From positions 1 through 33,963 of the forward strand of contig JAITUT010000022.1 of assembly GCA_031286325.1 (NCBI GenBank): DNA of 33,963 nt. Reading direction: 5' to 3'. The DNA is from Helicobacteraceae bacterium. Lineage in GTDB: Bacteria > Campylobacterota > Campylobacteria > Campylobacterales > SZUA-545. This document shows positions 23,541 to 25,131 of the stretch, piece after piece; position 1 is the stretch's first letter; the number at the start of each line of letters is the position of its first letter. The notes below the pieces were generated by a model. The model was not told the DNA's origin and searched no databases. It saw only the letters and a list, made by a program, of their open reading frames with translations. The translations under genes and the position numbers were made by a program.

Positions 23541-25124
23541 TCAATTAGCCTTGCAAAAACGTTTGTCAAGCTCGCAAGCTTTCGCCCGATCTTTCGTCGC
23601 TTTATTGTTATCGCCTAGCTTTTCATAAGCAAGTCCGCGATTATTATAAGTTTCCGCAATATACGGATTAGCCTCAATCCTTTGCGGATAAAGCTCAATC
23701 GCTTTCGTGAAATCCGCGATCGCTTTATTATGATTGCCCAAATTACTGTAAGCTACTCCGCGACTATCATAAGCAAAAGCATTATTTGGGTCAATTTCAA
23801 TTGCTTTTGTGCAATCCGATACCGCTTTATTATTATCGCCCAACTTAGTGTAAGCAAACCCGCGATTATTGTAAGCCATTGAATTCTTTGGATCAATTTC
23901 AATCACTTTTGTGTAATCAGCAATCTCTTTTTTATGATCGCCCAACATACCGTAAGTGCTTCCGCGATCAGCGTAAGCACTCGCAATATACGGATTAGCC
24001 CCAATCGTTTTCGGATGAAGCTCAACCGCTTTTGTGAAATCCACGATCGCTTTATTATAATCGCCTAAACTAGCGTAAGCCTTTCCGCGATTATGGTAAG
24101 CAAACGCATTATTGTTTGGATCAATTTCAATCGCTTTTGTGTAATCCGCGATCGCTTTATTATAATCGCCTAAATTACTGTAAGCGTTTCCACGATTAAA
24201 GTAAGCGCCATCCTTATTCGGATCAATTTCAATCGCTTTTGTGTATTCGCCTACAGCTGTCTGATAATCCCTAGCCGCAAAAGCCTTAAATCCTCTGTCA
24301 AAAGCTTCTCTTGCTTTATCGTCGTTGTTCGCGCTCTGTTGCCAAAAGCATTGGGTTCGCTCCTCGTTTGTGAGGTAGTAATTGGGTCTTGCTTTGTCGC
24401 TCTCTTGTCCAAAAAGATAAACAAAAATTCTAATTGCGCAATTTGGGTTCCAATTCCAGTAATTTATGAGCAGAGAGCTAGACATAGACCAAATAGTCTC
24501 TGGTTTTGTTTTGCCTGTTCGATCTGGCTTTAATATATTCATAGAAATATATTTATCAGTTTCCGAAGAAGTGTAGCTTTGCGTAACGGGAACTTGCGTA
24601 TTGCTCTGCCCGGAATAAAACCTGCCGCCCACAAAACCTGAGTGGTATGTGGTTTGGTTTTGATAGCTTGTGTAGGTGTTGGTGCTCGTATAAGTTTTTT
24701 GATCCAAACCAAAAATAATCGCGTAATCTAAATCATTATCCGCTGGGTTTCCCACATTTAAGCCAAAGAAGCGCATATTATCTTCAAGCATACGCGCGAA
24801 CTTCTTATCTTCAACGGTCGCTTGATCTCTTAAAAAAACGGCTATTTTGCCGCTTCTATTAAACGAGTGAGAGTGGTCTTTCTCCGCGTTTACATTAACT
24901 GTAGGTCTGACCGGGGCGCAACCGCTGAAAAGTAGCGTAGCGATCGCGATTAAAAAAGCGAACTTTTTCGCGGTTAAAGGGAAGCGGCGGCTAGGCTCGG
25001 CTAGAGCTGTGCTGTGCTGTGCTGTGCTGTGCTGTGCTGTGCTGTGCTGTGCTGTGCTGTGCTGTGCTGTGCTGTGCTGTGCTGTGCTGTAAACATTTGA
25101 ACTCCTTTTGTAAGCTAGAATCAT
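23541..25124 (-). CDS. TPR-repeat lipoprotein with frame-switching repeat tract
   Basis: As read here the frame has 527 codons. Residues 12-40 are encoded by the pentanucleotide tract (STAQH repeated). A lipoprotein signal follows (FAFLIAIATLLFSGC, Cys at 69), then a domain of unknown function (about 70-265, rich in Thr/Tyr/Ser; it recalls DUF4136-type lipoprotein domains), then about seven 34-residue TPRs (about 275-520), each with a pattern such as AYNNRGFAYTKLGDNNKA and an IEIDPN end. Nothing can start between the tract and the signal peptide (no ATG, GTG or TTG in frame), so translation must cross the repeats. The upstream ATG at 25122-25124 lacks a ribosome site; the well-placed ATG at 25094-25096 is out of frame at 17 repeats. 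Surface or periplasmic protein-protein interaction is likely; its partner is unknown. Confidence 0.8.
   Translation of the reverse strand: MILAYKRSSNVYSTAQHSTAQHSTAQHSTAQHSTAQHSTALAEPSRRFPLTAKKFAFLIAIATLLFSGCAPVRPTVNVNAEKDHSHSFNRSGKIAVFLRDQATVEDKKFARMLEDNMRFFGLNVGNPADNDLDYAIIFGLDQKTYTSTNTYTSYQNQTTYHSGFVGGRFYSGQSNTQVPVTQSYTSSETDKYISMNILKPDRTGKTKPETIWSMSSSLLINYWNWNPNCAIRIFVYLFGQESDKARPNYYLTNEERTQCFWQQSANNDDKAREAFDRGFKAFAARDYQTAVGEYTKAIEIDPNKDGAYFNRGNAYSNLGDYNKAIADYTKAIEIDPNNNAFAYHNRGKAYASLGDYNKAIVDFTKAVELHPKTIGANPYIASAYADRGSTYGMLGDHKKEIADYTKVIEIDPKNSMAYNNRGFAYTKLGDNNKAVSDCTKAIEIDPNNAFAYDSRGVAYSNLGNHNKAIADFTKAIELYPQRIEANPYIAETYNNRGLAYEKLGDNNKATKDRAKACELDKRFCKAN
25006..25090 (-). repeat. Pentanucleotide microsatellite (ACAGC)17
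   Basis: Seventeen perfect head-to-tail copies, GCTGT on the plus strand and ACAGC on the coding strand, lie inside the 5' coding region of the TPR lipoprotein. Five is not a multiple of three, so gain or loss of a unit by strand slippage shifts the frame. All three frames of the tract encode the same cyclic peptide (S-T-A-Q-H) without stops. The analogous known case is the CTCTT tract in neisserial opa genes. Confidence 0.97.
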
Positions 25125-25131
25125 AGCATAA
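25091..25131 (-). promoter_or_regulatory. Overlapping -10 box, start codons and ribosome site of the TPR lipoprotein
   Basis: Reading leftward: TATGCT (25126-25131) and TATGAT (25120-25125) are -10-like, AAAGGAG (25102-25108) is a strong ribosome site, and ATG at 25094-25096 follows five bases later. The other ATG (25122-25124) is part of TATGAT itself, so it would lie outside the message if that box is the promoter. Confidence 0.5.

What the first reader, a model, noticed from the sequence alone, without database searches (positions are those of the whole stretch)
25006..25090. Phase-variable switch: (ACAGC)17 inside a TPR lipoprotein gene
Seventeen perfect 5-base units lie before the signal peptide, and no in-frame start exists between the tract and the signal peptide. 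Every unit gained or lost shifts the frame. All frames of the tract itself are stop-free and encode the same five-residue cycle, so the tract is tolerated whatever its length. This is the classic architecture of slipped-strand phase variation, here on a TPR lipoprotein, for which I know no described example in Campylobacterota.
Basis: partly seen in the sequence, partly recalled or inferred. Interest (0 to 1): 0.75.

Follow-up and report, generated by a model that had tools for sequence, protein, structure and literature searches.

The report
Pentanucleotide on/off switch of a lipoprotein
A run of seventeen ACAGC units next to the start codon of a surface lipoprotein gene looks like a genuine random on/off switch, drawn in its OFF setting in this genome, and it is one of at least 21 such five-base runs placed at or before surface-protein genes of the same bacterium.

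Summary
The repeat is real: (ACAGC)17, perfect, 25090 to 25006 on the minus strand. ATG 25124, which makes the tract in frame, lies inside an extended -10 promoter box (TGCTATGAT) and has no ribosome-binding site. The real start is almost certainly ATG 25096 (AAGGAG, five bases, ATG), six bases before the tract. Read from there, 17 units give a 31-residue dead end; 16 or 19 open a 516- or 521-residue lipoprotein. The assembled gene is therefore OFF.

The tract is not alone. The same genome has 15 ACAGC arrays plus arrays of CGACA, CAACG and CAGTT, at least 21 loci. Four sit inside the 5' end of TPR genes; the rest (where complete) sit in short leaders before beta-barrel or lipoprotein genes, followed by a near-invariant hairpin. 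Six congeners have no (ACAGC)5. Composite arrays and near-identical flanks with 15 versus 7 units show that tract length changes. MutL was not found.

The kind is known: ACAGC tracts switch a methyltransferase in Bibersteinia, and Helicobacter bizzozeronii hopZ carries the same unit. The hairpin leaders resemble the Streptococcus gallolyticus Pil1 switch, but no intrinsic terminator was found. Read-level variation could not be tested.

The parts
25006..25090 (-). (ACAGC)17 pentanucleotide tract
   Evidence: 17 perfect units; other own-genome arrays
25120..25128 (-).
   Evidence: same element in C92b, TACGAT in C92a (ATG lost); class B leaders have TGGTATAAT at the equivalent place. By inspection; the strict sigma-70 scan did not call it
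25102..25107 (-). Shine-Dalgarno AAGGAG, five bases before ATG 25096
   Evidence: aligned with paralogues
25094..25096 (-). Most likely start codon (ATG TTT then the tract)
   Evidence: the array-less paralogue at C33:4587 is in frame from the same SD-ATG
25001..25003 (-). TAG that ends the 31-residue OFF product at 17 units
24921..25004 (-). Signal peptide module LAEPSRRFPLTAKKFAFLIAIATLLFSG, followed by the lipobox Cys codon at 24918-24920; 79-86% DNA identity to the modules behind the arrays of C92a and C57
24336..24920 (-). Mature N-terminal domain of the lipoprotein, no confident Pfam family; 40% identical homologue without array in a congener (G002)
23565..24284 (-). TPR repeat region
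   Evidence: TPR_1 E=9.5e-61
23541..25096 (-). Whole switchable gene, from the SD-ATG to the stop codon

Best explanation
The tract is a translational phase-variation switch. Transcription starts just after the extended -10 at 25120-25128. Ribosomes load at AAGGAG and start at ATG 25096, two codons before the tract. Replication slippage changes the number of ACAGC units, and each unit shifts the frame of everything downstream. With n = 1 modulo 3 (16, 19, 22) the ribosome reads through the (TAQHS) cycle into the signal peptide and the TPR lipoprotein is made and exported. With 17 or 18 units it stops soon after the tract. The assembled sequence, n = 17, is OFF. The same genome uses the same device on at least three more TPR genes, and a related one (array inside a short leader ORF, then a conserved hairpin, then an outer-membrane gene) on about 14 further loci, so the window gene is one member of a phase-variable surface repertoire. 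Shown by sequence: tract, start-site context, frames, paralogue and genome comparisons. Inferred: transcription start, slippage rate, expression, export.
For: Frame table by copy number. The four arrays inside genes (C88 window, C1, C57, C92a) all lie 4-6 bases after an SD-ATG, and each has an otherwise intact long ORF in exactly one of three phases. An array-less paralogue (C33:4587) starts in frame at the same SD-ATG, and a congener homologue starts at its SD-ATG straight into the signal peptide. ATG 25124 is not conserved. Tract-length mutability: C24 and C40 flanks are 58/60 and 82/82 identical but carry 15 and 7 units; composite arrays (ACAGC)7(ACGGC)10 and (ACAGC)8(ACGGC)3 mean a mutated unit was later multiplied. 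MutL (TIGR00585) gives no match in this 98% complete genome, against 14 of 14 controls. Same unit, same peptide, same place in unrelated phase-variable gene types, with a published ON/OFF correlation in B. trehalosi.
Against: No population or strain data: only one genome of the species is held, so no copy-number variation at this exact locus was seen. Nothing shows the gene is transcribed. The genome is a 96-contig draft, and the copy number of an 85-base tract rests on an assembly I cannot inspect, though the tract is inside a contig with unique flanks. The -10 box was recognised by eye, not by the strict scan.
Confidence: 0.82

Rival explanations
1. One reading: a phase switch, but started at ATG 25124, so that 17 units is ON and 16 or 18 is OFF.
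For: The 527-residue frame is open from ATG 25124 through the whole gene.
Against: No Shine-Dalgarno before it; it lies in the promoter's -10 box, so it should not be in the mRNA; in C92a the same position reads ACG; in C92b an extra base alters its frame; a strong SD-ATG lies 28 bases further on in another frame.
Confidence: 0.08
2. The tract is real but does not switch this gene: slippage is too rare, or expression comes from an internal or reinitiating start, and the array is a drifting microsatellite or a recombination joint between promoter and gene modules.
For: Arrays do sit at module joints: C88 and C92b share 94% of the upstream 48 bases but only 50% downstream, while C88 and C57 share 86% downstream but 57% upstream.
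Against: No start codon between tract and signal peptide; arrays are placed repeatedly just after start codons of surface genes with intact ORFs behind them; composite arrays and length differences show that units are gained.
Confidence: 0.07
3. Assembly artefact: the unit number or the array itself is an assembly error.
For: Several contigs of this draft break inside or next to such arrays (C24, C35, C40, C48, C84, C94).
Against: The window array is inside a contig with unique sequence on both sides; 21 or more arrays of four different units share the same placement, and the same unit at start codons occurs in many unrelated genomes.
Confidence: 0.03

Closest known systems
ACAGC-switched Type I methyltransferase M.Btr188III of Bibersteinia trehalosi (PMC4996451); CACAG repeat of Pasteurella haemolytica (Ryan and Lo 1999, seen only as a reference in PMC6321876)
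   Same: Same unit (or a rotation of it), same N-terminal peptide (STAQH)n right after the start, frame-dependent ORF; in B. trehalosi 27 units in frame and active, 17 out of frame and inactive
   Different: Methyltransferase rather than an exported TPR lipoprotein; different phylum
Helicobacter bizzozeronii hopZ with 5' (CAGCA)14 (PMC3234257, Table 4); (ACAGC)10 OMP-like gene in strain CCUG 35545 (L047)
   Same: Campylobacterota, same unit, 5' end of a surface-protein gene; in L047 OFF at 10 units, ON at 11
   Different: Outer membrane protein, not a TPR lipoprotein; two pentamer arrays reported in that genome against 21 or more here
Streptococcus gallolyticus Pil1 leader-peptide phase variation and attenuation (PMC3894217), for the hairpin-leader loci of this genome, not for the window gene
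   Same: Promoter, start codon, pentamer array in a short leader ORF, long-phase leader ending within or just at a stem-loop, surface-structure gene behind; most arrays in the short-leader phase
   Different: Hairpin here has no T run (in Pil1 removal of the T run abolishes termination); many loci instead of two; different phylum and unit
Haemophilus and Neisseria contingency genes (tetra- and pentanucleotide repeats in the 5' coding region, such as opa CTCTT; from general knowledge)
   Same: Repeat in the 5' coding region, frame-shift ON/OFF switching of surface proteins
   Different: Unit and product

Membership tests
SSR-driven translational phase-variable (contingency) gene | Perfect tandem repeat with unit length not a multiple of 3 in the 5' coding region | tested here: met
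SSR-driven translational phase-variable (contingency) gene | Downstream ORF intact, open in one of three phases only | tested here: met
   516/521 residues at 16/19 units, at most 36 residues at 15, 17 and 18
SSR-driven translational phase-variable (contingency) gene | Start codon upstream of the tract, no usable start behind it | tested here: met
SSR-driven translational phase-variable (contingency) gene | Tract length varies between cells or strains at this locus | not testable with these tools
   One genome per species, no reads; indirect support from paralogous arrays
SSR-driven translational phase-variable (contingency) gene | Expression follows the tract length | not testable with these tools
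   Needs a reporter or proteomics
Pil1-type leader-peptide phase variation with attenuation (for the hairpin-leader loci) | Array inside a leader ORF with its own promoter and start codon | tested here: met
   TGnTATAAT-like box, AGG, ATG, array in the complete copies (by inspection)
Pil1-type leader-peptide phase variation with attenuation (for the hairpin-leader loci) | Long-phase leader ends in or at the stem-loop, short-phase well before it | tested here: inconclusive
   true for the open phases of all nine complete leaders, but the number of open frames is what shuffles give (12 against 11.6, P=0.51)
Pil1-type leader-peptide phase variation with attenuation (for the hairpin-leader loci) | Stem-loop is an intrinsic terminator with a T run | tested here: not met
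   stem-loop of about -15 kcal/mol, arms 98% conserved, no T run directly after it; no terminator called in the two leaders scanned

The most novel reading that the evidence does not exclude
This uncultured Campylobacterota species runs a genome-wide combinatorial surface switch of at least 21 pentanucleotide arrays in two layers: translational switches inside TPR lipoprotein genes such as the window gene, and about 14 leader-peptide switches before beta-barrel and lipoprotein genes that act through a conserved hairpin without being intrinsic terminators. That would be a second origin of leader-peptide phase variation, with arrays that also serve as joints for shuffling promoters and genes.
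Probability: 0.3. Interest if true: 0.72.

Novelty: new member of a known kind. Interest (0 to 1): 0.5.

Why it matters
It corrects the phase of the gene and turns one curious tract into an entry point to a large, species-specific phase-variable surface repertoire. Four pentamer units share one kind of place, which offers natural replicates for measuring how unit and length set switching rates where MutL seems absent. The hairpin leaders are a testable second case of a regulatory design so far known to me only from S. gallolyticus.

Tried and rejected
Tested whether the hairpin-leader ORFs are open beyond chance: they are not, so coding selection on the leaders is not claimed. Tested the hairpin as an intrinsic terminator: no T run directly after it, no terminator call in the two leaders scanned. 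Searched 59 relatives, six of them congeners, for (ACAGC)5: none, so copy number cannot be compared across species. A pattern for variant units found nothing new. No confident Pfam family for the N-terminal domain (MetallophosC E=0.0018 is below its cut-off and ignored). A paper search for a phase-variable TPR lipoprotein found none. Structure prediction was not run: a very shallow alignment would not have given a reliable model of the N-terminal domain.

Full report
Observation. The tract is exactly as stated: 17 perfect ACAGC units on the minus strand, 25090 to 25006. It is stop-free in all frames and always encodes the TAQHS cycle. No start codon lies between it and the signal peptide. Behind it come a lipoprotein signal peptide (LLFSGC) and TPR repeats.

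Start codon. That ATG is inside CTATGATTC, which with the preceding TG reads TGC-TATGAT, an extended -10 box; no ribosome-binding site precedes it. Twenty-eight bases further on stands AAGGAG-TTCAA-ATG (25096), two codons before the tract, in a different frame. Aligned class A upstream regions show the ATG of the -10 box changed to ACG in C92a, while an ATG behind a purine-rich SD is kept in all five. An array-less paralogue at C33:4587 reads AAGGAGATCATAATG CACAGC ACGCCTAGCCGCCG and runs in frame from the same SD-ATG into the same signal peptide. A congener homologue (40% identical) also starts at its SD-ATG directly before the signal peptide, with no array. From 25096 the gene is closed at 17 units (31 residues, stop TAG 25003-25001) and open at 16 (516 residues) and 19 (521). 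I conclude that the assembled state is OFF.

Genome context. The genome (G000, 2.05 Mb, 96 contigs, 98% complete) holds 15 ACAGC arrays of 4 to 19 units, a (CGACA)16 array, CAACG arrays on C65, C71 and C79 and CAGTT arrays on C35, C38, C58 and C94. C35 and C94 are probably the downstream halves of C38 and C58, so I count at least 21 loci. None of 59 relatives, six of the same genus, has (ACAGC)5. AccD is 65% identical to that of H. bizzozeronii against 52% or less in the other taxa tested, which agrees with Campylobacterota.

Two classes. Class A: the array is in the 5' end of the gene. C88 (window, n=17, ON at 16/19), C1 (n=19, ON at 17/20), C57 (n=6, ON at 5/8), C92a (n=6, ON at 4/7); all encode TPR proteins and all are OFF as assembled. 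Class B: the array is in a short leader with a TGGTATAAT-like box, AGG and ATG, followed by CTCATATAAGGGGGCTTATATGAGATAA, and roughly 90 to 380 bases later by a gene with its own SD. Fifteen such hairpins were found: ten before beta-barrel proteins (OMP-like; Pfam matches only below cut-off; ten close paralogues plus one distant), three before lipoproteins of another family, one before a TPR lipoprotein, and one (C60) with no array. The hairpin arms are 98% conserved against 74% upstream and 61% downstream. It carries a stop in each frame within or directly behind it. In the array-less C60 the leader is open through the hairpin (34 residues). These class B loci lie outside the finding and their mechanism is inferred only.

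Mutability. C24 and C40 have flanks identical at 58 of 60 and 82 of 82 bases and 15 against 7 units. C84 is (ACAGC)7(ACGGC)10 and C26b (ACAGC)8(ACGGC)3: a changed unit that was then multiplied. MutL was not found here or in five congeners, while all 14 control genomes gave a signal. Taking the phase of 13 complete arrays, one is in the reading phase where 5.3 are expected (P=0.008); this test was chosen after seeing the data and mixes both classes, so it is only a hint that these genes are mostly OFF.

Modules. C88 and C92b share upstream sequence (94%) but not downstream (50%); C88 and C57 share downstream (86%) but not upstream (57%); C57 and C1 share upstream (82%) but not downstream (53%). 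Promoters and genes have been recombined at or near the arrays.

Known kind. A scan of genome contigs stopped at its limit with 116 stretches having (ACAGC)5 in many phyla. In a good part of them it lies 3 to 11 bases after an SD-ATG and a long ORF is open in one phase only; products include what look like Type III methyltransferases, an HsdM, GT25-like glycosyltransferases and an H. bizzozeronii outer membrane protein (identities by inspection). In B. trehalosi 27 units are in frame and active, 17 out of frame and inactive, N-terminus MPN(STAQH)n. H. bizzozeronii CIII-1 hopZ has (CAGCA)14. So the window gene is a new member of a known kind. The class B leaders recall the Pil1 switch of S. gallolyticus, but the terminator feature is not met.

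Limits. No reads, one genome per species, draft assembly, promoter and start inferred from sequence, function of the lipoprotein unknown beyond predicted export and TPR repeats, which usually mediate protein binding.

Noticed in passing
L011, L012, L013, L014, L017, L020, L022, L165, L166, L171, L172, L174, L175, L202, L212 (contigs C26, C31, C33, C55, C85, C92, C1, C2, C35, C45, C71, C79, C60, C94): Fifteen leaders with a near-invariant hairpin (CTCATATAAGGGGGCTTATATGAGATAA), fourteen with a pentamer array or a contig break there, before beta-barrel and lipoprotein genes; resembles the S. gallolyticus Pil1 leader-peptide switch.
   Followed up: partly
L172 (C45), L174 (C71), L175 (C79), L196 (C65), L171 (C35), L199 (C58), L204 (C38), L212 (C94): Other pentamer units (CGACA, CAACG, CAGTT) occupy the same place as ACAGC in homologous leaders: the unit changes while the period of five stays.
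   Followed up: partly
L019 (C84) 6-91 and L012 (C26): Composite arrays (ACAGC)7(ACGGC)10 and (ACAGC)8(ACGGC)3: a point mutation in a unit was amplified.
   Followed up: yes
L022 (C92) and window 25006-25128: Promoter and gene modules are shuffled at the arrays: C92b has the window gene's promoter and start but a class B leader and another lipoprotein behind the array.
   Followed up: partly
L047: Helicobacter bizzozeronii CCUG 35545: (ACAGC)10 eleven bases after an SD-ATG, OFF as assembled, 314 residues open at 11 units.
   Followed up: yes
L018 61-91 (C57): Run of about 30 G near the contig end in G-rich sequence; may be a sequencing or assembly artefact.
   Followed up: no
L162, L163: Congener homologues of the lipoprotein domain look frame-shifted or truncated in their assemblies (G003 near 1510; G002 near the contig end), without a long repeat at the site.
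   Followed up: no
L013, L014, L020 between hairpin and gene: Long spacers made of recurring palindromes such as GCGAAAGCAAGCGTTCGC and GGGCGAAC..GTTCGCCC, like a dispersed REP family.
   Followed up: no
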